64,000 nucleotides of DNA, taken from the NCBI GenBank assembly GCA_017525855.1, contig JAFXSE010000002.1, forward strand, positions 55,200 to 119,199, written 5' to 3'. The notes beneath the pieces were generated by a model, which was not told the DNA's origin, did not search any database, and saw only the letters and a list, made by a program, of their open reading frames with translations. Made by a program: the position numbers and the translations under genes. The stretch comes from Bacilli bacterium. GTDB lineage: Bacteria > Bacillota > Bacilli > RF39 > UBA660. Shown here piece after piece: positions 10,036 through 63,868 of this stretch (within the stretch, counting starts at the first letter, position 1; each line of letters opens with the position of its first letter).

Positions 10036-10155
10036 TCTTGATTCGAGTTGCCATAAAAAAGAGCTTCATTGCATAGACAAAGAAACTCTTTATTAGAAAG
10101 TAGTCCTCGGTAGGATTTACTAACAACCTACTGTCTATGGCACCAACAAATTAAA
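10036..10155 (-). ncRNA. Ribosomal protein L10 leader with intrinsic attenuator
   Basis: The leader upstream of rplJ has the conserved sequence of Firmicutes L10 leaders: GCCATAGACAGTAGG, then CCTACCGAGG, then GTCTATG pairing back. It ends with AGAGTTTC pairing to GAAGCTCT followed by TTTTTT, a terminator hairpin. In this family L10 (or L10 with L12) binding controls read-through. The sequence supports the leader directly; the regulatory mechanism comes from known relatives. Confidence 0.9.
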
Positions 10156-10158
10156 TTT

Positions 10159-42553: not shown

Positions 42554-44209
42554 TTACTCAACTTCTACTATATCACCAAAATCATCAAAAATACTACCAT
42601 TATTCTGATTTTTTTGTATTTCACCATCATTATATATTAAATCAGGCTCATCCATATATACATATTTATAATTTTTCTTAATTCTAGCTATATATTTTTC
42701 TTTTTCATTATTCCATTTTTCATCAGACATAATAACAATTTTTTTATTAATATTTAAAATCTTATTTAAAACTACTGACAATTCATCTAAATGTAATAAA
42801 TTTTCCTTTATTACAGAATCATACTCATAACTAAGTACTAAAACATCAGGGCTAGAAACTCTAATATTTCCATCTAATAAAGTACATACCAAATAGCCTA
42901 TATTTTGATCAAATGTATAATCATTTAATTTTTGAAATAGTAATTTGTCCTTATTCAGCTCATTCTTATCCGCTTTAGCAAATGCATTGTTTAGGCGAAT
43001 TTCAAGAATCTCCTCAATATTTGAATTAAGAGGCTCCTTTTGATTGCCTTTTACATTCGTTTTACTACTATTCTCTTCTTTTGATATTGATTCATTAATA
43101 TTAACAATTTTCGAAGAATTTTTTTCATTTTTAACTTTTTTTTCCTCCTGAGAAATTATTTCCCGGGAAATAATTTTACTATTTTTATTCATAAAATCTA
43201 AAAACATGATTTCAAGATAAATTTTCGGATTTCCACTTTTCTTTAATTCGAACATTTTTTCGTTAATAATATTAGAAAGTTCAATTAATCTATTAATATC
43301 ACTAAATTGACTATCTTTATCTTCAATACTTAAAACAATAATATTTTTTAAATTTAATAAAACATTTTCAGCAAGTTGAATTATATTAATACCATCACTA
43401 TTCCATGTATCAATTAAGTCAATAACATCCTTCATATTGTTATTATAAATATAATTAATTAACTTCAAAACGTCATCATCAGAAACAATTTTATTTAATT
43501 TAATATAGTCACTAAGTTTAATAGTATTATCACAATATGCATATAACTTATCCAACATACCAATAGAGTCTCTCATACCACCATTAGAAGCAGTTGCAAT
43601 TCTTAGTAAAACATCATCATCAACAACAATATTTTCAGCATTACATATATTTTTCAAATTTAAAACTATATCTTTCTCACTTATCCTATTAAAAGAAAAA
43701 CATTGACACCTAGAAACAATCGTTTCAGGTACTTTCTGTGGATCAGTAGTTGCTAAAATAAAAATTACGTGAGAAGGAGGTTCCTCTAATGTTTTTAATA
43801 ATGCATTAAAAGCTTGAAGTGTAAGCATGTGAACTTCATCAATAATGTATACTTTATATTTTAATTGACTAGGCACAAGATTAATCTTATCTCTAAGTTC
43901 TCTAATTTCATCAACGCCATTATTAGAAGCAGCATCAATTTCAATAATATCAAGGCATTCTTTACCAGAAGTAATATTGCAAATTTCACATTTTTGGCAT
44001 ATATCACCATCACCTTTAACGCAATTAACAGCACGAGCAAAAATTTTTGCTATAGACGTCTTACCAACACCACGAGGTCCAAAAAACATGTATGCATGAC
44101 TAATTTTATTATTTTTAATAGAATTACTTAAGGTCCTAACAATAACATCTTGTCCTACAACTTCACTAAACTTAGTTGGTCTATATTTTCTATATAAAGT
44201 TTGATACAT
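42554..44209 (-). CDS. dnaX: DNA polymerase III subunits gamma/tau
   Basis: DnaX is the clamp-loader ATPase. It begins YQTLYRKYRPTKFSEVVGQD, with the P-loop GPRGVGKTS, the four-Cys zinc site (CVKGDGDICQKCEIC) and the SRC sensor. The tau-like C-terminal part (about 350-551) is divergent and rich in Ser, Lys and Glu. Within that linker, codons for IISREIIS contain a perfect Noc-type palindrome. The ATG at 44207-44209 is chosen from the GAGGTG SD. Confidence 0.96.
   Translation of the reverse strand: MYQTLYRKYRPTKFSEVVGQDVIVRTLSNSIKNNKISHAYMFFGPRGVGKTSIAKIFARAVNCVKGDGDICQKCEICNITSGKECLDIIEIDAASNNGVDEIRELRDKINLVPSQLKYKVYIIDEVHMLTLQAFNALLKTLEEPPSHVIFILATTDPQKVPETIVSRCQCFSFNRISEKDIVLNLKNICNAENIVVDDDVLLRIATASNGGMRDSIGMLDKLYAYCDNTIKLSDYIKLNKIVSDDDVLKLINYIYNNNMKDVIDLIDTWNSDGINIIQLAENVLLNLKNIIVLSIEDKDSQFSDINRLIELSNIINEKMFELKKSGNPKIYLEIMFLDFMNKNSKIISREIISQEEKKVKNEKNSSKIVNINESISKEENSSKTNVKGNQKEPLNSNIEEILEIRLNNAFAKADKNELNKDKLLFQKLNDYTFDQNIGYLVCTLLDGNIRVSSPDVLVLSYEYDSVIKENLLHLDELSVVLNKILNINKKIVIMSDEKWNNEKEKYIARIKKNYKYVYMDEPDLIYNDGEIQKNQNNGSIFDDFGDIVEVE
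43153..43176. other. Noc-type binding site inside dnaX
   Basis: A perfect 24-bp palindrome centred on CCCGGG contains ATTTCCCGGGAAAT (43158-43171), identical to the B. subtilis Noc-binding consensus as I know it. The same 14-mer is repeated in the array at 45.0-45.3 kb. In this position it lies in the variable linker of DnaX, where the protein sequence is little constrained. Confidence 0.75.
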
Positions 44210-44701: not shown

Positions 44702-44712
44702 ATAATCCTCCA

Positions 44713-44797
44713 AAAAAAAGATGCACATAAGTAATAAATGTTAAGGCTGCTATCTTCCGATTCTGACCTGGTTCCATAATTACCTATTGCATCAAAC
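44713..44797 (-). ncRNA. ffs: Signal recognition particle RNA, small bacterial type
   Basis: The leftward RNA contains the conserved helix 8: CAGGTCAGAATCGGAAGATAGCAGCC split around the GGAA tetraloop. Outer helices pair GATGCA with TGCATC and ATAGGTAAT with ATTACTTAT, giving one rod of about 80 bases with a T-rich end. It lies between dnaX-tadA and gyrA, as scr does in B. subtilis, but is the short 4.5S form lacking an Alu domain. Confidence 0.9.
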
Positions 44798-44800
44798 ACA

Positions 44801-44951: not shown

Positions 44952-44998
44952 ATTTTTCAAGAAATAACATTAGTTAATATTACAATATTAATATCCTA

Positions 44999-45014
44999 TG
45001 TTCAACGTGGAACT
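44999..45014. other. parS-like site 1
   Basis: TGTTCAACGTGGAACT. It differs from the symmetric parS form TGTTCCACGTGGAACA at one inner and one outer base. Confidence 0.75.
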
Positions 45015-45025
45015 TTAATTTAATT

Positions 45026-45039
45026 ATTTCCCGGGAAAT
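45026..45039. other. Noc-type site 1
   Basis: ATTTCCCGGGAAAT, a perfect palindrome equal to the B. subtilis Noc-binding consensus. Confidence 0.8.
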
Positions 45040-45072
45040 ATTATCAGTTAATATTATAATATTAATATTCTA

Positions 45073-45088
45073 TGTTTCACGTGGAACT
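45073..45088. other. parS-like site 2
   Basis: TGTTTCACGTGGAACT. The core TTTCACGTGGAAC is a standard parS variant; only the last base departs from consensus. Confidence 0.85.
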
Positions 45089-45099
45089 ATAATCAAATT

Positions 45100-45113
45100 A
45101 TTTCCCGGGAAAT
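45100..45113. other. Noc-type site 2
   Basis: ATTTCCCGGGAAAT, perfect, 27 bp after the parS-like site start. Confidence 0.8.
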
Positions 45114-45146
45114 ATTATTGGTTAATATTACAATATTAATATTTTA

Positions 45147-45162
45147 TGTTCCACGTGAAACT
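45147..45162. other. parS-like site 3
   Basis: TGTTCCACGTGAAACT. It matches the B. subtilis parS consensus TGTTCCACGTGAAACA at 15 of 16 positions. Confidence 0.88.
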
Positions 45163-45173
45163 TTAATTTAATT

Positions 45174-45187
45174 ATTTCCCGGGAAAT
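45174..45187. other. Noc-type site 3
   Basis: ATTTCCCGGGAAAT, perfect palindrome. Confidence 0.8.
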
Positions 45188-45220
45188 ATTATTAGTTAAT
45201 ATTACAATATCAATATCTTA

Positions 45221-45236
45221 TGTTCAACGTGGAACT
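45221..45236. other. parS-like site 4
   Basis: TGTTCAACGTGGAACT, the same variant as site 1. Confidence 0.75.
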
Positions 45237-45247
45237 TTAATTTAATT

Positions 45248-45261
45248 ATTTCCCGGGAAAT
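45248..45261. other. Noc-type site 4
   Basis: ATTTCCCGGGAAAT, perfect palindrome. Confidence 0.8.
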
Positions 45262-45294
45262 ATTATTAGTTAATATTACAATATTAATATCTTA

Positions 45295-45310
45295 TGTTTC
45301 ACGTGGAACT
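45295..45310. other. parS-like site 5
   Basis: TGTTTCACGTGGAACT, identical to site 2. Confidence 0.85.
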
Positions 45311-45321
45311 TTAATTTAATT

Positions 45322-45335
45322 ATTTCCTGGGAAAT
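45322..45335. other. Noc-type site 5 (one mismatch)
   Basis: ATTTCCTGGGAAAT: the central CCCGGG has become CCTGGG, breaking perfect symmetry. Confidence 0.65.
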
Positions 45336-45368
45336 ATTATTAACTAATATTACAATATTAGTATCCTA

Positions 45369-45384
45369 CGTTCCACGTGGAACT
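45369..45384. other. parS-like site 6
   Basis: CGTTCCACGTGGAACT: the 14 inner bases form a nearly symmetric parS core; the first base is C instead of T. Confidence 0.82.
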
Positions 45385-45419
45385 TTAATTTAATTATTTC
45401 AAAAAATATATATTAAAAC

Positions 45420-45454: not shown

Positions 45455-47989
45455 TTATGATTGCTCACTGATATCAATAATATCATCATTTTTATCTACT
45501 ATAGCTACATTTGCAACTAACTGATCATCACGTAATTTAATTAATCTAAGACCTTGAGTAGCTCTTTTTAATGTTGAAACTTGACTTAAAGGCATTCTCA
45601 TAACCATACCACTGTTAGTAATAATCATTAAATCTTTTTCACTATCGTCTTTTATGCACTTAAGTGCAACCATTGAACCATTTTTCTCAGTTAAATTCAA
45701 GGCCTTAACACCCTTGCTTCCTCTATGAGTAAGTCTATATTCATCGATTGGAGTTTGTTTACCATAACCTTTATCTGTAACAATTAATACTAAATCATCA
45801 GGATTGATTACCTCTGCTCCTACAACTATATTTTCATCTAAATCAATACCCTTTACACCAGAAGCTGTTCTTCCCATAGATCTAATTTCATTCTCATTAA
45901 ATCTAACTAATCTACCATTACTTGAACCAATAATGATTTCATCATCACCTGAAGCTTTTCTAACACTGATTAACTGATCATTGTCTTTTAAACTAATAGC
46001 AATTTTTCCACTACTTCTAATATTATCAAATTCACTAATTGAAGTTTTTTTCACAAGACCATCTTTAGTTACAAATATTAAATATTTTAAATTATCTTCA
46101 TCACTTGAGATATTAATAATAGAACGTATGTTCTCATCTTTTTCTAGTGATAGTAAATTTATTATAGGTAATCCCTTAGATTGACGACTAAACTCAGGAA
46201 TTTCATACCCTTTCATTCTATAGACTCTTCCTTTATTAGAAAAGAATAAAATATAATCATGCGTCTTAGTAGATATTAAGTGTTCTACAACATCTTCATC
46301 ATTAGTAGTCATTCCCTTAATACCAACGCCACCTCTATTTTGAGATTTATAAACATCAGATTTTAAACGTTTAATATAACCTCTATTAGTTAAAGTAATA
46401 ATAACATCTTCAACAGGAATTAAGGATTCATCCTCTATATAATCAATAGCAGTCATATCAATTGAAGTACGCCTTTCATCACCATATTTATTTTTAATTT
46501 CTAACAATTCATTCTTAATAATTTCTAGAACCTTATTTTCATCAGCTAAAATACCTTTCAAATCAGAAATTAATTTAAGTAAATCATTTAATTCATTTTC
46601 AATTTTTTCTCGTTCTAAGCCGGTTAAACGACGTAATCTAAGTTCTAGTATACTATCAGCTTGAATCTCTGTAAAATTAAACTTAGCAATTAATTTTTCT
46701 TTTGCCTCAACATCAGTTAAAGCATTTCTAATTATAGATATTACTTCATCTAAATTATCAAGAGCTTTTTTATAACCTTCTAATATATGAACTCTTTCTT
46801 CTGCTTTATTTAAATCAAATCTTGTTCTTCTTATAATAACTTCCTTTTGATGATCAATATATTTAGAAATAATATCTTTCAATCCTAAAGTCTTAGGCGT
46901 ACCCATATCAATTACTAAAAATATTATTCCATAATTAACTTGAAAATTAGTATGTTTATATAAATTATTTAAAACAACTTGAGGATTAGCTTCTTTTTTC
47001 AAAGTAATAGTAATTTTAACACCATCTTTTAAATCAGTGTGATAATCAGAAATACCATCAATAGTTTTATTATGAACAAGTTCAGCTACCTTATTTTTTA
47101 AATCCATTGTATTAACACCATAAGGAACCTCAGTAATAATAATTTGATGATGATTACCTACTTCCTCTATTTGTGCTCTACTTCTTATAGTGATACTACC
47201 TCTACCAGTTTCATAAGCTTGCTTAATACCAGAATTTCCCAATATTATACCACCAGTTGGAAAATCAGGCCCCTTAATATAATTCATAAGACCAAGGGTG
47301 TCAATATCAGGATTATCAATATAGGCAACGCATCCATCAATAACTTCACTTAAATTATGTGGAGGAATATTTGTAGCCATACCGACAGCAATTCCCATTG
47401 ACCCATTTACTAATACATTGGGTATCCTAGATGGTAAAACAGTAGGTTCAGGACTAGTTTCATCAAAGTTAGGCATCATATCGACAGTATTTTTTCTTAT
47501 ATCTCTTAACATTTCTAAAGAAATCTTTGATAATCTTGCTTCAGTATAACGATAAGCTGCTGCCCCATCGCCTTCTATATTACCAAAGTTACCATGACCA
47601 TCAATCATCATATATCTTTGATTAAAATCCTGTGCAAGTCTTACCATTGCCTCATATATAGAACTATCACCATGTGGATGATAATGTCCCATAACATAAC
47701 CTACTGTAGTAGCACTCTTTTTGTGAGGTTTATCTGGTGTATTTCCCTCCTCAAACATAGACCACAAAATTCTTCTATGAACAGGTTTTAATCCATCACG
47801 TAAATCGGGAATAGCACGAGAAGTTATAACACTCATTGAATAATCAAGAAATGAATCCCTTATTTCTTTAACAATATCATTAACATCATGAGTATCCCTT
47901 TCATGAAAAGTACCATTAAAATTATTATCCTCTTGAACTATTTTATCCCCAATATTTTCTTCCATATTACTTAATTTTTCATTATCCAT
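45455..47989 (-). CDS. gyrA: DNA gyrase subunit A
   Basis: GyrA cuts and rejoins DNA during negative supercoiling. The catalytic Tyr lies in AAAYRYTEARLS, and the QRDR region contains YHPHGDSSIYEAMVRLAQDF. The C-terminal beta-pinwheel has several repeats. The GyrA box, usually QRRGGRG, reads QNRGGVG. It is assigned GyrA and not ParC by its place next to gyrB near dnaA. The start at 47987-47989 follows AGGAGGTGA; a frame two codons longer would abut the SD. Confidence 0.96.
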   Translation of the reverse strand: MDNEKLSNMEENIGDKIVQEDNNFNGTFHERDTHDVNDIVKEIRDSFLDYSMSVITSRAIPDLRDGLKPVHRRILWSMFEEGNTPDKPHKKSATTVGYVMGHYHPHGDSSIYEAMVRLAQDFNQRYMMIDGHGNFGNIEGDGAAAYRYTEARLSKISLEMLRDIRKNTVDMMPNFDETSPEPTVLPSRIPNVLVNGSMGIAVGMATNIPPHNLSEVIDGCVAYIDNPDIDTLGLMNYIKGPDFPTGGIILGNSGIKQAYETGRGSITIRSRAQIEEVGNHHQIIITEVPYGVNTMDLKNKVAELVHNKTIDGISDYHTDLKDGVKITITLKKEANPQVVLNNLYKHTNFQVNYGIIFLVIDMGTPKTLGLKDIISKYIDHQKEVIIRRTRFDLNKAEERVHILEGYKKALDNLDEVISIIRNALTDVEAKEKLIAKFNFTEIQADSILELRLRRLTGLEREKIENELNDLLKLISDLKGILADENKVLEIIKNELLEIKNKYGDERRTSIDMTAIDYIEDESLIPVEDVIITLTNRGYIKRLKSDVYKSQNRGGVGIKGMTTNDEDVVEHLISTKTHDYILFFSNKGRVYRMKGYEIPEFSRQSKGLPIINLLSLEKDENIRSIINISSDEDNLKYLIFVTKDGLVKKTSISEFDNIRSSGKIAISLKDNDQLISVRKASGDDEIIIGSSNGRLVRFNENEIRSMGRTASGVKGIDLDENIVVGAEVINPDDLVLIVTDKGYGKQTPIDEYRLTHRGSKGVKALNLTEKNGSMVALKCIKDDSEKDLMIITNSGMVMRMPLSQVSTLKRATQGLRLIKLRDDQLVANVAIVDKNDDIIDISEQS

Positions 47990-48002
47990 CAACATTCACC
48001 TC

Positions 48003-53116: not shown

Positions 53117-54490
53117 TCATTTTTGTATCTTCTCCTTTAACTTGTCAATTATCTTTGCTAAATCAGGATTAACCTTTATTTCATTTTCAATTTTCTCAAC
53201 TGAATGCATTACCGTGGAATGATCTTTTCCACCAAAGTCTGTTCCTATTTTAGGGAAAGATTCAGATGTTAGTTTTCTACATAAATACATAGCAATCTGT
53301 CTAGGAAATGAGATATTAGAACTTCTTTTCTTACTTCTTATATCCTCAACAGTTATTTGAAACTCTTCAGCCACTATTTTTTGAATTTTATGGATATCGT
53401 CTTTTTCACAAATACCACTACTAATAAAATCTTTAAGAGCTTCTATAGCTAGTTCCAAATTAATTTGAGCACCACCCATAATTGCGGAATAAGCAACAAG
53501 TCTTGTTATAGCCCCTTCTAAGTGCCTTACATCATTACCCATGTTAGAAGCTATATATTGTATTACATCATCAGTTATTTCTTGTTCAATATTTCCTGAC
53601 AAAACTTTCTTTTTCAATATTTCTACTTTTAAATTAAAATCAGGAGGAAATATATTAACAGTAAGTCCCCAACAAAATCTAGTTTTTAAACGATCCTCTA
53701 ATAGTTTTAAGTCATCAGGGGATTTATCTGATGAAATAATAATTTGTTTTGAATCACTATATAAAGTATTAAATGTATGAAAGAACTCTTGCTGAGTAGC
53801 ATTAGCTCCACCTAAATATTGTATATCATCAATAATTAAAACATCAATATCTCTATATTTTGATTTAAAAAAGTCCATATTATCAAAGTTATTATCATGT
53901 TGACTCTTTCTTTGTATCTTTATAAAATCATTAATAAAATCGTTACTAGTGACATATAATACCCGCCTATTACTATTTTCAGCTATGTAATTTCCTATAG
54001 CATGCATCAAATGTGTTTTTCCTAATCCACTATTACCGTATAAAAACAAAGGATTATACATTTTACCAGGATTTTCAGCAACAGATAAAGCAGCAGCTTG
54101 TGCAAACTTATTACTATTACCAACAATAAAGTTATCAAAAGTATATTTAGGATTTAAATTACTTTGTTCTTTACTCATATGAGGAATACCCTGCGGTAAA
54201 TCCTCCACTTTTTTTTCTTTTTCCTTATTTTCTAACTCTTTGATTTCATCCTCTAATAAAAATTCAATATCAAAATTAGTTCCAGTAATATTATTCAAAA
54301 TATCCTTTATTTTATCCAAATAGTTATCTTCCATATGCTTTTTATGTATTTGCATTGGAACAATAATAATAGCTTTACCATTATCTAACTTATACAATTT
54401 AGTGTCTAAAAACCAGGTATTGTAAGCTAAGGAAGACAGTTCTTCTTTGATTTGATTTAAAAAATTTTGCCATAAAACATCAACATTCAT
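53117..54490 (-). CDS. dnaA: Chromosomal replication initiator DnaA
   Basis: DnaA opens the origin. Domain I (about 1-80), a charged linker, the AAA+ domain with GNSGLGKTHL and LIIDDIQYLGG, and the C-terminal DNA-binding helix-turn-helix with GGKDHSTVMHSVEKIE are all present. The 457 residues are typical. It runs leftward, away from the box cluster at 54.7-54.9 kb. Confidence 0.99.
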   Translation of the reverse strand: MNVDVLWQNFLNQIKEELSSLAYNTWFLDTKLYKLDNGKAIIIVPMQIHKKHMEDNYLDKIKDILNNITGTNFDIEFLLEDEIKELENKEKEKKVEDLPQGIPHMSKEQSNLNPKYTFDNFIVGNSNKFAQAAALSVAENPGKMYNPLFLYGNSGLGKTHLMHAIGNYIAENSNRRVLYVTSNDFINDFIKIQRKSQHDNNFDNMDFFKSKYRDIDVLIIDDIQYLGGANATQQEFFHTFNTLYSDSKQIIISSDKSPDDLKLLEDRLKTRFCWGLTVNIFPPDFNLKVEILKKKVLSGNIEQEITDDVIQYIASNMGNDVRHLEGAITRLVAYSAIMGGAQINLELAIEALKDFISSGICEKDDIHKIQKIVAEEFQITVEDIRSKKRSSNISFPRQIAMYLCRKLTSESFPKIGTDFGGKDHSTVMHSVEKIENEIKVNPDLAKIIDKLKEKIQK

Positions 54491-58469: not shown

Positions 58470-60332
58470 ATGAAATACGAAATAATTGTAGTAGGTGGTG
58501 GTCACGCTGGTTGTGAAGCCGCCCTAGCCAGTGCTCGCAAAGGGCATAAAACACTTCTAATAACTGGAAATATAAAAAATATTGCTGACATGCCATGTAA
58601 TCCATCAATTGGAGGCCCTGCTAAAGGAATAGTTGTAAGAGAAATAGATGCATTAGGTGGAGAAATGGGAAAAAATGCAGATAAAAGCACCTTACAAATG
58701 AAAATGCTAAATACAAAAAAAGGACCTGCAGTCCAGGCACTAAGGGCTCAAGGTGATAAAATAATTTACCCAAAAGAGATGCTAAAAACATTAAATACTA
58801 CTAAAAACCTAGATATAAAAGAAGCAATGGTTGAACACTTAGAAATAGATAATAATAAGATTAAAGGTGTAGTTTTAGAAGATGGTATTAAAATAGAAAC
58901 AGATATTGTTATTCTTACAACAGGAACATATTTAAAAGGACAAATACTAGTAGGAAGTAAAAAAACATCAGGTGGACCACATGGAGAAAAGCCAAGTAAG
59001 TTTTTAAGTGATGACTTAAGAAAATTAGGATTTACAATACTAAGATTAAAAACAGGAACACCACCAAGAATAGAAAAAAACAGCATTGATTATACTAAAG
59101 CTCAACTAGAAACAGGCGATAAAGAAGTACATACATTCTCATTTGATAATAAAATATATTACGATGTTAATAAACAAGAACCGTGCTATTTAATATATAC
59201 AACAGAAAAAACACATCAAATAATAAAAGAAAACTTAAAAAAATCTAGTATGTATGGAGGATACGTTGAAGGAATAGGACCAAGATACTGTCCTTCAATA
59301 GAAGATAAAGTAGTAAGATTTAGTGATAAAGAGCGTCATCAGCTATTTTTAGAACCAGAAAGCATTTACTATGATGACATATATTTACAAGGTTTTTCAA
59401 CCAGCATGCCCCATGACATTCAAGAAAAAATGGTTCATTCTCTACCTGGCCTTGAAAAAGCAAAAATATTAAAATATGCTTATGCTATAGAATATGATGC
59501 CATTGATCCAAGGCAATTAAAGCAAAGTTTAGAAACCAAAATAATAGAAAATCTTTTTACAGCAGGACAAATCAATGGAACAAGCGGATATGAAGAAGCA
59601 GCTGGGCAAGGATTAATAGCGGGAATAAATGCCTCTTTAAAATTAGAAGGAAAAGACCCACTAATATTAAAAAGAAATGAAGCATATATTGGAGTATTAA
59701 TTGATGACTTAGTTACAAAAGGTATAAAAGATCCATACAGATTATTAACTTCACGTGCTGAATATCGCTTACTTCTAAGACATGATAATGCTGATTTAAG
59801 ATTAAGAGATTATGGATATCAAGTAGGTTTGATAGACGAAGAAACGTATAAAAAATTTAAAAATAAAAAAAATGAAATAGAAACACTTACTAAACTACTT
59901 AAAGAGAACAAAATAACCCCCAAAAAAGAAATAAATAAGTATTTAACAAGTATTAATTCTACTCCATTAAAAGATGGAATATCTTTATATAATTTACTAA
60001 AAAGGCCAGAAATAAGCATGAAAGACATAGAAAATTTTATTACTTTTGATTATAGCAAAGAAGTAAAAGAACAAGTATCTATAAATATAAAATATGGTGG
60101 ATATATATCAAAAGCAGAAAGAGAATCTCAAAAAATGCTAAGTTTAGAATCAAAAAAAATTCCGGCAGATATAGATTATTCAAAAATACCAAACATTGCA
60201 AGCGAAGCAAGAGAAAAACTAGAAAAAATAAGACCAACATCTATTAGACAAGCATCAATGATAAGTGGAGTAAATCCAGCGGACATCTCAATATTAATGG
60301 TATATTTAAAAAGAGGAGAAAAAAATGTCTAA
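58470..60332 (+). CDS. mnmG: tRNA uridine 5-carboxymethylaminomethyl modification enzyme MnmG
   Basis: MnmG is the FAD-dependent partner of MnmE. It starts with the dinucleotide fold EIIVVGGGHAGCEAA and contains the PSIGGPAKG and GPRYCPSIEDKV motifs. The ATG at 58470-58472 follows AAAGGTGG and gives 620 residues; the longest frame begins inside mnmE. It overlaps rsmG by eight bases. Confidence 0.97.
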   Translation: MKYEIIVVGGGHAGCEAALASARKGHKTLLITGNIKNIADMPCNPSIGGPAKGIVVREIDALGGEMGKNADKSTLQMKMLNTKKGPAVQALRAQGDKIIYPKEMLKTLNTTKNLDIKEAMVEHLEIDNNKIKGVVLEDGIKIETDIVILTTGTYLKGQILVGSKKTSGGPHGEKPSKFLSDDLRKLGFTILRLKTGTPPRIEKNSIDYTKAQLETGDKEVHTFSFDNKIYYDVNKQEPCYLIYTTEKTHQIIKENLKKSSMYGGYVEGIGPRYCPSIEDKVVRFSDKERHQLFLEPESIYYDDIYLQGFSTSMPHDIQEKMVHSLPGLEKAKILKYAYAIEYDAIDPRQLKQSLETKIIENLFTAGQINGTSGYEEAAGQGLIAGINASLKLEGKDPLILKRNEAYIGVLIDDLVTKGIKDPYRLLTSRAEYRLLLRHDNADLRLRDYGYQVGLIDEETYKKFKNKKNEIETLTKLLKENKITPKKEINKYLTSINSTPLKDGISLYNLLKRPEISMKDIENFITFDYSKEVKEQVSINIKYGGYISKAERESQKMLSLESKKIPADIDYSKIPNIASEAREKLEKIRPTSIRQASMISGVNPADISILMVYLKRGEKNV

Positions 60333-60963
60333 AGAAGAATTTTTAGAAGAATTACAAAAAATAGGTATAATTCCAACTAAAGAACAATTAGAAAAATTAG
60401 ATATTTATTATAAATTATTAATTGAATATAACCAACATATAAATTTAACAAGAATAACAGAAGAAAAAGAAGTATATTTAAAACATTATTATGATAGTTT
60501 AACAATTGTAAAAGTTATAGATTTAAATAAAATATCTACATTGCTTGATTTTGGTACAGGAGCTGGTTTTCCTGGAATTGTTTTAAAAATAATGTATCCA
60601 AATTTAAATATCACATTAGTAGATTCACTACAAAAAAGAGTAAAATTTCTAAATATAGTAATAGAAAAATTAAATTTAAAAAATATAGAAGCAATACATG
60701 AAAGAGTAGAAAATATTAAACTAAAACATTACGATATCATAACAACAAGAGCAGTAGCAAATCTTTCAAAACTATTAGATTATACCCATAACTTAATTGA
60801 TTCAACTACCCTATTTATACCATTAAAAGGAAACGTTGAAGAAGAATTAATTGATGCCGAAAAAAAGCTAAAAAAATACAAACTTAAAATAAATAAAAAA
60901 GAGAAATTTTATCTTCCTAATGAAAATAGTGCTAGAAATATATTAGTAATTACAAAATGCTAA
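60325..60963 (+). CDS. rsmG: 16S rRNA (guanine-N7) methyltransferase RsmG
   Basis: RsmG methylates G527 of 16S rRNA. The SAM motif reads LDFGTGAGFPGIVL and the TTRAVANL segment is present. 212 residues. It ends the mnmE-mnmG-rsmG unit. In B. subtilis noc and parAB follow; here they do not. Confidence 0.96.
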   Translation: MSKEEFLEELQKIGIIPTKEQLEKLDIYYKLLIEYNQHINLTRITEEKEVYLKHYYDSLTIVKVIDLNKISTLLDFGTGAGFPGIVLKIMYPNLNITLVDSLQKRVKFLNIVIEKLNLKNIEAIHERVENIKLKHYDIITTRAVANLSKLLDYTHNLIDSTTLFIPLKGNVEEELIDAEKKLKKYKLKINKKEKFYLPNENSARNILVITKC

Positions 60964-61078: not shown

Positions 61079-63868
61079 ATGAAAAAGAATAATAAAGGTT
61101 TTACTCTGATTGAAATAATTGCTGCTGTTACAATTTTAGGTATTATATCAGCAACTATAATTATGGCAGTTTCAAAATACAGAAAAAGAGCAGAACAAGC
61201 AGTGTATAATACTTATGAAAAAAATATGATTTCTGGTGCTACATCTTATTTATCACAAAATGATTCAGAAATACCTTTAGAGCAAAATTCTATTTTATTA
61301 GATAGTGATACGCTAACTATTGAAGGATTTTTAGATGGTATGGCTGATCCAAGTTATAATGGGCAACTATGCTATGGATATGTAACAGTTAAAAATAATA
61401 AAAAACTATCATCAAATTCAACCCCAGCTGAATATGAAGTAGATCCAACAGGAAAAATTATTTGGAAAGATAGTAATACAGAAAACCTTGATTTAAATTA
61501 TACAGCATGTTTGATGTGCAAAAACTATACTTCAAAAGGATGTGACTACATTTCCCCAGAACTTCAAGGTGAAGTAAAAATAACATTTGATGTTAATGGA
61601 GGAGATGCGTGGACTTCAGAAACATGCACAACTCCGTCAATACTAAATGAAAAAACCTGTAGTAAAAATGTAAAAACGTATTCAAATTATGGAAAACTAC
61701 CAACACCAACAAAATATGGATATACCTTTAATAATTGGTATTCAACCGGAGAATTAAATGATTTATCAATTAGCCCAAAAACCCCAAAAAGTAAAGTAAT
61801 AACTACGTCTGATCAAATACTATTTGCTAATTGGCAAGGAAATGAATATAAAATTAAATATAATAAAAACTCATCCGCAGCCAAGGGAAATATGAATGAA
61901 CAGACAATGAGATATGGAACTTCAAAAGCACTACTCGCAAATAAATATACACGAGCAGATTACAGCTTTGATGGATGGAATACTAAAGCAGACGGAACAG
62001 GGACAGCGTATGGGGATAAGCATGTAGTAACTAATTTAGCAACGGGAGGCACAGTCAATTTATATGCACAATGGAGAGAAGCATTAAAACCCACCTATAA
62101 AATAAAGTTTAATAAGAATAATAGCAATGCAACTGGCACTATGTCAGAGCAAACACTTGCAATTGGAGAAAAAAAGTCGTTGTTAGAAAATACATTTACT
62201 TTAAAAGGATATGATTTTATTGGTTGGAATACTAATTCAACAGCCACAGAAGCAGAATATGCAAATAAAGCACAAGTAGTAGATTTAGGTGAAAACAATA
62301 CAACAGTAAATTTATATGCTGTATGGAAACCAAGAGTTTATACTCTAACATATGATGGACAAGGTGGAACATACCAATCTAAATCTACATGGACAGATAA
62401 TAGTAATAAAGCAATATATGACCAAAACTATAAAGTTTGGGACAATACAAATTTCTTTGTAAGAAAAGGATATAATTTCAAAGGCTTCTATGCGACCACT
62501 GGTGGAAATTGGGCAGGTTGGGAAGGCAAATGGAAATATGATAATGGAGAATATGGAATAACAAATAATAAACTAACATTATATGCAAAATGGACTGCTA
62601 AACAATATACAGTAAGTTATAATTGCGATGGAGGAAGTGGAGCTCCATCAAATCAAACAATCACATATGGAAATACTTTTACCACTAGCACAAAAACATG
62701 TACAAAAAAAGGATATACTTTCAAAGGATGGTATGATTCAACAGGATCAAATTGGGCAAATTGGAGTGGCACATGGAAATATGATAATGGAGAATACGGA
62801 ATATCAGGCAATGTATTAAATTTAAAGGCTAAGTGGGAAGCAAAAAAATATAGCGTGACATATAATTGTAATGGAGGAAGTGGAGCTCCATCAAATCAAA
62901 CAGTAACATATGGTACAACATTTACTACTAGCACTACAAAATGTACTAGATCTGGATATACATTTAATGGTTGGTATGATTCAACAGGATCAAATTGGGC
63001 AAATTGGAGTGGCACATGGAAATATGATAATGGAGAATATGGAATAACAGGCAATTTATTAAGTTTAAAGGCAACTTGGACCGCAAACAATTCAGGATCA
63101 TCTTCAGGATCATCATCGGGATCATCATCAGGATCATCAGGAACAACCACAAAAACTCCAAGTGTATCATGTAGTACTCCATCAGCATGGAGTAAATCAA
63201 CAAACACAATAAAAATAACAGGAACAAATACAACAGTATTATTATATGCTAAATATAATGAATCTGTTTATTCTAGCACTACTGCAAATCCATTTAACTT
63301 TACAACAAACTACCATGCTAACTATGTTAGAGGTAGAAATAGTACTTCAGACACAGCTGATAAAACTTGTTATGCTTATATAGATAAGAAAGCACCATAC
63401 ACACCTTATGTAGATTGGTCAACAATGAGAATAAATGGTGAATATAAAGAAAAAGCATGGAATGTATGCTATGTTATGAGAGATGGAAAAGTTACAACAG
63501 CATCAGCCTCAGCAGAAAATGAAGAATATACTGGAGATTATGGATGTACATTAGCAAATATTGGCCAATCAGGATGGACAGCTCAGACAAAAATACGTTT
63601 TTCTTATGGAGCCAATGATCAGCTTGGTAATAATGAATCTGCATCCTCAGGTATCTACAAATATAATTTAAAAGGATGGTGTTCACCAAACTCATCATCA
63701 ACAGGACAATTAGCCCAATACAATCATTGTCAATGCGATAGTTCAGGCCTAGTTTTTAGAAAATGTGAAGTAACATCGCAAGATTATGCTGGAAACATTT
63801 CTGGAAAATTAACAATATTTGCATCAGCAAATGATATGACTTGCTTTAACAACGGAAAGTGTTGGTAG
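61079..63868 (+). CDS. Surface protein with type IV prepilin signal and six InlB-type repeats
   Basis: The 929-residue protein begins MKKNNKGFTLIEIIAAVTILG, a textbook prepilin cleavage site with Glu at +5 and a long hydrophobic helix. After a linker, six Listeria-Bacteroides (InlB B-type) repeats run from about residue 164 to 669, each ending in a Trp such as AKW or ANW. Repeats 5 and 6 are almost identical and 81 residues apart. A Gly-Ser linker (about 669-690) leads to a Cys-rich C-terminal domain. It is probably a cell-surface adhesin assembled as a pilin-like subunit; that role is inferred. It has its own promoter and an SD (AGGTGTGAT). Confidence 0.9.
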   Translation: MKKNNKGFTLIEIIAAVTILGIISATIIMAVSKYRKRAEQAVYNTYEKNMISGATSYLSQNDSEIPLEQNSILLDSDTLTIEGFLDGMADPSYNGQLCYGYVTVKNNKKLSSNSTPAEYEVDPTGKIIWKDSNTENLDLNYTACLMCKNYTSKGCDYISPELQGEVKITFDVNGGDAWTSETCTTPSILNEKTCSKNVKTYSNYGKLPTPTKYGYTFNNWYSTGELNDLSISPKTPKSKVITTSDQILFANWQGNEYKIKYNKNSSAAKGNMNEQTMRYGTSKALLANKYTRADYSFDGWNTKADGTGTAYGDKHVVTNLATGGTVNLYAQWREALKPTYKIKFNKNNSNATGTMSEQTLAIGEKKSLLENTFTLKGYDFIGWNTNSTATEAEYANKAQVVDLGENNTTVNLYAVWKPRVYTLTYDGQGGTYQSKSTWTDNSNKAIYDQNYKVWDNTNFFVRKGYNFKGFYATTGGNWAGWEGKWKYDNGEYGITNNKLTLYAKWTAKQYTVSYNCDGGSGAPSNQTITYGNTFTTSTKTCTKKGYTFKGWYDSTGSNWANWSGTWKYDNGEYGISGNVLNLKAKWEAKKYSVTYNCNGGSGAPSNQTVTYGTTFTTSTTKCTRSGYTFNGWYDSTGSNWANWSGTWKYDNGEYGITGNLLSLKATWTANNSGSSSGSSSGSSSGSSGTTTKTPSVSCSTPSAWSKSTNTIKITGTNTTVLLYAKYNESVYSSTTANPFNFTTNYHANYVRGRNSTSDTADKTCYAYIDKKAPYTPYVDWSTMRINGEYKEKAWNVCYVMRDGKVTTASASAENEEYTGDYGCTLANIGQSGWTAQTKIRFSYGANDQLGNNESASSGIYKYNLKGWCSPNSSSTGQLAQYNHCQCDSSGLVFRKCEVTSQDYAGNISGKLTIFASANDMTCFNNGKCW

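What the first reader, a model, noticed from the sequence alone, without database searches (positions are those of the whole stretch)
44952..45407. Interleaved parS and Noc-type sites in an exact 74-bp tandem array near oriC
Seen directly: six parS-like 16-mers (starts 44999, 45073, 45147, 45221, 45295, 45369) alternate with Noc-type 14-mers (starts 45026, 45100, 45174, 45248, 45322), every class exactly 74 bp apart. Established knowledge: TGTTCCACGTGAAACA is the parS consensus bound by ParB/Spo0J, and ATTTCCCGGGAAAT is the binding sequence of Noc, the ParB paralogue for nucleoid occlusion; in B. subtilis parS sites are single and Noc sites are scattered. Inference: ParB and Noc clamps would load a few tens of bp apart on the same DNA, or one protein with relaxed specificity reads both. 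I know of no described interleaved parS/Noc array.
Basis: partly seen in the sequence, partly recalled or inferred. Interest (0 to 1): 0.95.

Follow-up and report, generated by a model that had tools for sequence, protein, structure and literature searches.

The report
Bacterial centromere with two interleaved clamp sites
Near the replication origin of an uncultured bacterium, six parS-like sites alternate with five Noc-type sites every 74 bases, and many sampled relatives keep both kinds of site close together in that same region, which likely makes it one shared loading platform for two related DNA-clamp proteins, ParB and an unusually long Noc.

Summary
The array is real: 5.9 copies of a 74-bp unit (44961-45400) between gyrA and the SRP RNA gene, with six parS-like and five NBS motifs (4 exact, 1 with one mismatch). 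It is not a curiosity of one genome. In a draw of 58 genomes from the relatives' family, 51 carry exact NBS (reversed control 0); 74 of 75 listed sites lie on stretches with oriC-region or noc-soj-parB genes. A genome with one 1.26-Mb contig has all seven of its parS and NBS matches within 6.5 kb. Exact parS-NBS pairs at most 62 bp apart occur in 80 of 291 family genomes. Tandem units with both motifs were found in 17 genomes, with 16 periods. Relatives encode ParB (R-x-x-G/S, 26 of 26) and a Noc-clade protein (Q-K-x-R, 33 of 33) of 339-620 aa that mostly lacks room for the N-terminal membrane helix and has a long low-complexity linker. So Noc sites, scattered in Bacillus, are here gathered at the centromere. 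Most likely ParB and Noc clamps load side by side on one satellite-like centromere; what Noc does there is inferred. The window shows neither gene, binding is untested, and some ParB quartets (the nearest relative's included) were reported promiscuous in another ParB.

The parts
44961..45400 (.). 74-bp tandem array, 5.9 copies, carrying both site types
   Evidence: TRF
44999..45014 (+). parS-like site 1 (TGTTCAACGTGGAACT)
45026..45039 (+). NBS 1, exact ATTTCCCGGGAAAT
45073..45088 (+). parS-like site 2 (TGTTTCACGTGGAACT)
45100..45113 (+). NBS 2, exact
45147..45162 (+). parS-like site 3 (TGTTCCACGTGAAACT)
45174..45187 (+). NBS 3, exact
45221..45236 (+). parS-like site 4 (TGTTCAACGTGGAACT)
45248..45261 (+). 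NBS 4, exact
45295..45310 (+). parS-like site 5 (TGTTTCACGTGGAACT)
45322..45335 (+). NBS 5, one mismatch (ATTTCCTGGGAAAT)
45369..45384 (+). parS-like site 6 (CGTTCCACGTGGAACT)
43158..43171 (+). outlying exact NBS inside dnaX; an NBS (up to 1 mismatch) lies inside dnaX in 24 of 46 loci that hold dnaX
45455..47995 (-). gyrA, upstream neighbour of the array
   Evidence: Pfam
44712..44798 (-). small SRP RNA gene (ffs), downstream neighbour
   Evidence: Rfam RF00169
42554..44218 (-). dnaX (DNA polymerase III clamp-loader subunit)
   Evidence: Pfam
53117..54490 (-). dnaA, marks the oriC region
   Evidence: Pfam
60325..60963 (+). rsmG; in several relatives a noc-like gene follows it, here a List_Bact-repeat gene follows

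Best explanation
The array is likely the chromosome's centromere: a satellite-like tandem repeat whose units each offer one loading site predicted for ParB (parS) and one predicted for a Noc-type ParB paralogue (NBS), so that two CTP-dependent DNA clamps would load side by side and spread over the same origin DNA. Shown: the array, both motifs, their joint presence in the gyrA-dnaX stretch of many relatives, the scarcity of either site elsewhere in the genomes searched, and two proteins in relatives with different specificity residues. Inferred: that the window's organism has both proteins, that each binds its motif, and that they spread as clamps. Also inferred: ParB does the usual work (ParA-driven origin segregation, SMC loading), while the Noc-type protein, which in 30 of 33 cases starts too close to its fold to carry the N-terminal membrane helix and has instead a long linker, acts only at the origin, as a local division or initiation checkpoint rather than a chromosome-wide occlusion factor. 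Because the period differs between genomes while exact motifs recur, the unit appears to turn over by repeat duplication under selection for the sites.
For: Array and sites. Five relatives fetched with the window's RecF-type protein: parS after gyrA in 5 of 5, NBS in 4 of 5; the fifth contig ends within 50 bp of its parS. Whole-genome counts in these five at up to 1 mismatch: 17 of 18 NBS and 18 of 21 parS lie in the gyrA-dnaX region. Family draw: 51 of 58 genomes with exact NBS, reversed control 0 in 58; 74 of the 75 sites listed (21 genomes; the list was cut) lie on stretches bearing oriC-region or noc-soj-parB genes. 26 of 34 genome labels, picked for NBS or nearness and not for pairs, have parS and NBS within 3 kb. 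G397 (contig of 1,256,952 bp, genome about 1.3 Mb): all 7 matches within 6.5 kb; G376: all 7, one of them mixed, within 300 bp. Exact parS and NBS 1-31 bp apart in 57 of 291 and 32-62 bp apart in 48 of 291 family genomes, reversed control 0; union 80, counted by hand. Alternation: 223 label switches, 156.3 expected, sd 7.7 (biased sample). ParB R-x-x-G/S 26 of 26, Noc-like Q-K-x-R 33 of 33; a 100/100 branch puts the Noc-like rows with the two solved Nocs and the ParB rows with three solved ParBs. Lysine at 179 or 184 suffices with Q173 and R201 for NBS (PMC7383237 passages).
Against: No ParB, Noc or Soj match is in the window (tblastn) and its genome is not held. All six parS copies deviate from the 16-bp consensus, two inside a half-site. 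ParB quartets are not all of the strict kind: G001, the nearest relative by gyrA and gyrB, has RTKG, which made Caulobacter ParB promiscuous; 8 of 26 have K or R at 184 and 5 of 26 have S at 201, frequent in dual-specificity variants; the same paper allows both in parS-specific proteins. 7 of 58 family genomes have a Noc-like protein but no exact NBS, and G016 and G030 have one exact NBS each but no Noc-like match; draft gaps were not checked. 8 of 34 labels show no parS-NBS pair within 3 kb, some because contigs end. G140 has 17 NBS-like sites (up to 1 mismatch) but no ParB or Noc match. Short Noc-like proteins without the helix but with spread sites exist (G086, G168, G198), so helix loss and confinement are not tied one to one. 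One exact NBS (G020:C1:104579) lies far from the cluster. No binding, localisation or genetics was possible.
Confidence: 0.68

Rival explanations
1. Ordinary nucleoid occlusion in miniature: the Noc-type protein still blocks division over the nucleoid as in B. subtilis, and the sites merely crowd near the origin because the chromosome is small. Interleaving with parS would then be an accident of sharing the same safe intergenic gap.
For: Noc sites are origin-biased elsewhere too: about 70 around most of the B. subtilis chromosome but not the terminus, and all but one of 41 loci in S. aureus within 700 kb of the origin (passages of PMC4331003 and PMC5540599). The protein is in the Noc clade.
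Against: Confinement to a few kb of a chromosome of about 1.3 Mb, or to some tens of kb in other genomes, leaves most of the nucleoid unmarked. The N-terminal helix needed for membrane recruitment and division inhibition in B. subtilis has no room in 30 of 33 Noc-like proteins, whose first in-frame start is 18-28 residues before QPR; it is 34 in G004 and 42 in G008 and G015. Alternation exceeds random order within clusters.
Confidence: 0.3
2. One protein of relaxed specificity (ParB) reads both motifs, and NBS is just a variant parS.
For: NBS differs from parS at only two positions per half-site. G001 ParB has RTKG, promiscuous in the Caulobacter background; 8 of 26 ParBs have K or R at 184 and 5 of 26 have S at 201.
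Against: A second, Noc-clade protein with Q-K-x-R is present in relatives (33 of 33 aligned). With a pattern admitting all mixtures, 73 of 75 listed sites are pure parS or pure NBS; the two mixed ones are GTTCCACGTGGAAT and GTTCCACGTGAAAT. About 28% of ParBs at large have K or R at 184.
Confidence: 0.12
3. A neutral or selfish minisatellite that happened to amplify a stretch holding one parS and one NBS, with no function of its own beyond single sites.
For: Spacer (mean conservation 0.94) is about as conserved between the first five copies as parS (0.93), NBS a little more (0.99), as recent duplication predicts. Most periods are not shared between genomes. Contigs often end inside arrays.
Against: Tandem units with both motifs were seen with 16 periods in 17 genomes, each between gyrA and dnaX or running off a contig there (seven of the 17 have only about two copies). 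Non-tandem genomes (G217, G019, G248) also alternate. Exact motifs persist while spacers differ.
Confidence: 0.15
4. The sites regulate transcription of gyrA, ffs or dnaX rather than segregation.
For: The cluster lies between gyrA and ffs, and an NBS lies in dnaX in 24 of 46 loci with dnaX.
Against: parS with ParB is the established chromosome-partition pair, and a ParA-type gene stands before parB (Pfam in G002; tblastn in others). Copy number and spacing vary too much for promoter control.
Confidence: 0.06

Closest known systems
Chromosomal ParABS of Bacillota (Soj-Spo0J-parS)
   Same: parB next to a ParA-type gene, parS near gyrA/dnaA, G002 ParB closest among solved chains to Spo0J 6sdk, residues R-x-x-G/S
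   Different: parS copies sit beside, and often in tandem units with, the site of a second clamp
Noc-NBS nucleoid occlusion system (B. subtilis, S. aureus)
   Same: Noc clade, Q-K-x-R residues, exact NBS sequence, rsmG-noc order in several relatives
   Different: Sites gathered near the origin instead of scattered; protein 339-620 aa; no room for the N-terminal helix in 30 of 33; long linker; position 184 is not lysine in 33 of 33
F-plasmid sopC centromere (tandem 43-bp repeats; recalled, plus a reference title seen)
   Same: Tandem array of centromere sites for a ParB-type protein
   Different: Plasmid, one site type and one protein; here chromosomal and two site types
mParSpot, an engineered ParB-parS plus Noc-NBS labelling system (PMC11109969; search listing and abstract start only)
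   Same: Uses both pairs together
   Different: Artificial; not a natural interleaved array

Membership tests
Chromosomal parS centromere | Cluster of GTTYCACGTGRAAC-type palindromes near dnaA/gyrA | tested here: met
   the window's own copies deviate from the 16-bp consensus at one or more positions
Chromosomal parS centromere | ParB with parS-type residues and a ParA in the genome | tested here: inconclusive
   Met in relatives (ParA-type by Pfam in G002); no match in the window and its genome is not held
Chromosomal parS centromere | ParB binds and spreads; SMC loaded | not testable with these tools
   needs ChIP-seq; SMC genes were not searched
Noc-NBS system | NBS motif ATTTCCCGGGAAAT | tested here: met
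Noc-NBS system | Noc-clade protein with Q173, R201 and K at 179 or 184 | tested here: met
   33 of 33 aligned relatives: the 30 best-scoring plus G002, G004, G005; not seen for the window
Noc-NBS system | N-terminal amphipathic membrane helix | tested here: not met
   First in-frame start lies 18-28 residues before QPR in 30 of 33, 34 in G004, 42 (TTG) in G008 and G015; judged from length and by eye, no helix predictor was run
Noc-NBS system | Sites scattered over much of the chromosome | tested here: not met
Noc-NBS system | Inhibits division over the nucleoid | not testable with these tools
   no experiment possible

The most novel reading that the evidence does not exclude
A bacterial satellite centromere run by two paralogous CTP clamps: ParB and a membrane-helix-free Noc co-load on alternating sites, form one mixed clamp domain at the origin, and the array turns over like eukaryotic centromeric satellites. 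Noc's centromeric use may even be older than its chromosome-wide nucleoid-occlusion role.
Probability: 0.4. Interest if true: 0.93.

Novelty: new variant of a known kind. Interest (0 to 1): 0.82.

Why it matters
ParB and Noc are the textbook case of a duplicated DNA-binding protein that split in specificity and job: one marks the origin, the other is spread over the chromosome. Here a whole family appears to keep the split specificity but puts both sites on one locus. That makes testable whether Noc needs scattered sites or a membrane helix at all, how two sliding clamps share one DNA track, and whether bacterial centromeres can evolve as fast-turnover tandem satellites.

Tried and rejected
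Similarity of the array to phage and plasmid records: no match. A fixed parS-NBS spacing: distances of 22-31 bp occur in 10 genome labels against 6.2 expected by random placement within clusters, 188 of 5000 trials as high, with a range chosen after looking; the larger count (57 versus 48 of 291 for gaps 1-31 and 32-62 bp) shows no strong rule, so I dropped it. Helical phasing: periods from 62 to 338 bp give no common phase. Protein constraint as cause of the dnaX NBS: its position ranges over residues 308-502 of a part judged variable by eye, mostly read as ISREI, so a DNA-level reason seems more likely. Structure prediction and a homologous-protein search were not run; SMC genes were not searched. 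Taxonomy beyond the record titles could not be had (paper search for UBA7476: none); RF39-like Bacilli is my recollection only.

Full report
Observation. The window holds a 74-bp tandem array at 44961-45400 (5.9 copies, 90% matches, no indels) between gyrA (45455-47995, minus; Pfam) and the small SRP RNA gene (44712-44798, minus). Units carry a parS-like 14-mer and, 26 bp on, an NBS. Four NBS are exact and one has one mismatch; the sixth unit ends before its NBS is complete. Another exact NBS lies at 43158 inside dnaX. The parS copies are imperfect: all six lack the last A of the 16-bp consensus and two have A in place of C inside the left half-site. The array lies about 8 kb from dnaA. tblastn with a relative's ParB, Noc and ParA-type proteins finds nothing in the window; rsmG (60325-60963) is followed by a List_Bact-repeat gene.

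Relatives. A search of the species-genome collection with the window's RecF-type protein (SMC_N family by Pfam; recF by position) gave five loci, titled Bacillales bacterium UBA7476, uncultured Firmicutes (one) and uncultured Bacilli (three). parS lies after gyrA in 5 of 5 and NBS in 4 of 5; L002 ends within 50 bp of its parS. Over these five whole genomes, at up to one mismatch, 17 of 18 NBS and 18 of 21 parS lie in the gyrA-dnaX region; the three other parS-like sites each have one mismatch.

Family level. In a draw of 58 genomes from the collection's family of G003, 51 have exact NBS, one to eight in 50 of them and 20 in G027; the reversed pattern has none in any of the 58. The listing was cut and showed 75 sites in 21 genomes. 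I fetched stretches around all of them: 74 lie on stretches with genes of the oriC region or noc-soj-parB, one (G020:C1:104579) does not. Of 34 genome labels looked at, picked for NBS or nearness and not for pairs, 26 (the window included) have parS and NBS within 3 kb; in some of these the NBS is the dnaX one, not one in the gap. In a class draw of 198, 29 genomes have exact NBS; by handle overlap at least 25 of the 198 belong to the family and 22 of those match, leaving 7 matches among the rest. Exact parS and exact NBS 1-31 bp apart occur in 57 of 291 family genomes and 32-62 bp apart in 48 of 291, 80 in union by my hand count, control 0. In a phylum draw, 4 of 392 genomes match the 1-31 bp pattern, and all four handles are family members; by handle overlap at least 19 family members were in that draw. 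It has no genome above 3.6 Mb, so classical Bacillus is probably not in it; the comparison with Bacillus and Staphylococcus rests on papers.

Whole chromosomes. A pattern that admits parS, NBS and every mixture was run on ten genomes. It found 80 sites, 75 listed: 73 are pure parS or pure NBS. G397, whose main contig is 1,256,952 bp of a genome of about 1.3 Mb, has all seven of its sites within 6.5 kb; G376 has all seven, one of them mixed, within 300 bp. Others have an outlier: G061 one mixed site on another contig, G384 an NBS about 31 kb off, G217 NBS 7 and 13 kb off. For contrast, G116, not in any family draw, has a Noc-like protein in a 292-aa frame, whose likely start reads MFNLFTRD, and 19 NBS (up to one mismatch) on 18 contigs.

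Tandem units. Among 28 loci given to TRF (27 genomes, all picked because close pairs or repeats had been seen), 17 genomes, the window included, have tandem units with both motifs, with periods 62, 66, 70, 74, 79-80, 83, 108, 118, 125 (two genomes), 186, 198, 209, 232, 235, 296 and 338 bp. Ten of them have 2.7 to 12.8 copies, seven only about two; the unit NBS of G018 and G463 has one mismatch. Several contigs end inside the array (G027:C1, G009:C24 and C2, G203:C2, G365:C1), so copy numbers are lower bounds. Across 45 clusters from 54 genome labels, the number of parS/NBS switches is 223 against 156.3 expected (sd 7.7); of 37 clusters with at least four sites, 27 switch more than expected, 7 less and 3 exactly as expected. 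This count left out L052 (a copy of L001), L053, the loci fetched only for proteins or single matches (L006-L018, L054-L083, L104-L183) and the loci L096-L103 from genomes outside the family draws. It is biased: 20 genomes were picked for close pairs and tandem copies are not independent.

Proteins. All five relatives have a parB of about 300 aa and a longer noc-like gene; in four of them the two lie on one contig a few kb apart, in G005 on different contigs. In G002 Pfam confirms rsmG before the noc-like gene and a ParA-type gene before parB; other relatives show the same neighbours by size or tblastn. In the 58-genome draw, 56 have a Noc-like match with an open frame of 343-728 aa. I aligned 33 Noc-like proteins (the 30 best plus G002, G004, G005; the lower-scoring ones were not read, and G001 was left out for an assembly gap) and 26 ParBs. 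All 33 carry Q-K-x-R at the four specificity positions, with x never lysine; all 26 ParBs carry R-x-x-G or S. Jalal 2020 (PMC7383237, passages) reports that Q173 and R201 with lysine at 179 or 184 give NBS binding and R-T-A-G gives parS binding. It also reports that RTKG and other single-lysine RxxG variants of Caulobacter ParB were promiscuous and that dual-specificity variants mostly have T or S at 201, while parS-specific ones tolerate S at 201 and any residue at 184. G001 ParB is RTKG, 8 of 26 have K or R at 184 and 5 of 26 have S at 201. So ParB might touch NBS in some members; I raised that rival from 0.05 to 0.12 and lowered the main reading from 0.72 to 0.68. The scripts that picked the rows required the QPR, GERR and EN.QR motifs, so conservation of those is not an independent result. 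In the tree the Noc-like rows share a side with 7nfu and 7ol9 (solved Noc) behind a 100/100 branch, and the ParB rows with 6sdk, 1vz0 and 7bnk; the bootstrap had not fully settled.

What is odd about this Noc. B. subtilis Noc needs an N-terminal amphipathic helix for membrane binding and function, and all homologues examined there were predicted to have it (PMC4331003 passages). The family's Noc-like proteins mostly begin just before the ParB_N fold: 18-28 residues before QPR in 30 of 33. They carry about 160-260 residues of linker rich in P, S, T, N, Q, G, D and E in the nine genomes measured, then, in most rows whose end I saw, a YQ..I-type C-terminus. S. aureus Noc also restrains replication initiation (PMC5540599 passages), which is why I keep an initiation role open.

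Mechanism. Most likely ParB and Noc clamps load at neighbouring sites and spread over one origin domain. Partition by ParB and the local action of Noc are inferred. In print: searches for Noc with ParB, parS, NBS and nucleoid occlusion, Noc binding sites with origin-proximal, three of parS, Noc, tandem, RF39, sopC with 43-bp, tandem and parS, Noc-binding sites with parS sites and interspersed, and parS with tandem array, oriC and ParB listed no paper whose title or abstract start describes a natural interleaved array. I saw listings, abstract starts and passages, not whole texts, and the library lacks most subscription papers.

Against. The window's genome is not held; binding is untested; ParB quartets allow cross-binding in some members; 7 of 58 family genomes have a Noc-like protein but no exact NBS, two have an NBS but no Noc-like match; G140 has NBS-like sites without a found Noc; short Nocs without room for the helix but with spread sites occur in G086, G168 and G198.

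Noticed in passing
window 43158-43171: An exact NBS inside the dnaX coding sequence; an NBS (up to 1 mismatch) lies inside dnaX in 24 of 46 loci with dnaX, at varying positions, mostly read as ISREI.
   Followed up: partly
window 61079-63868: Where several relatives have noc right after rsmG, the window has a 929-aa protein with List_Bact repeats and an N-terminal methylation motif, holding a 243-bp repeat (62464-63074).
   Followed up: no
L086, L087 (G203): Separate arrays in one genome: NBS-only units of 71-74 bp and parS-only units of 42-44 bp in the same stretch.
   Followed up: no
L038, L048 (G027): Two different gyrA-linked clusters in one draft genome, probably a mixed bin.
   Followed up: no
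G026, G020, G031: parB appears to lie apart from noc in some members (ParB and Noc matches tens of kb apart or on other contigs).
   Followed up: no
L135 (G090): A Noc-like protein in a 681-aa frame, beginning MALFNRKD and ending in GFWNLFK, in a genome not in the family draws, with its NBS within about 40 kb around rsmG-noc.
   Followed up: no
window 10048-10158: Ribosomal protein L10 leader, just over Rfam's threshold.
   Followed up: no
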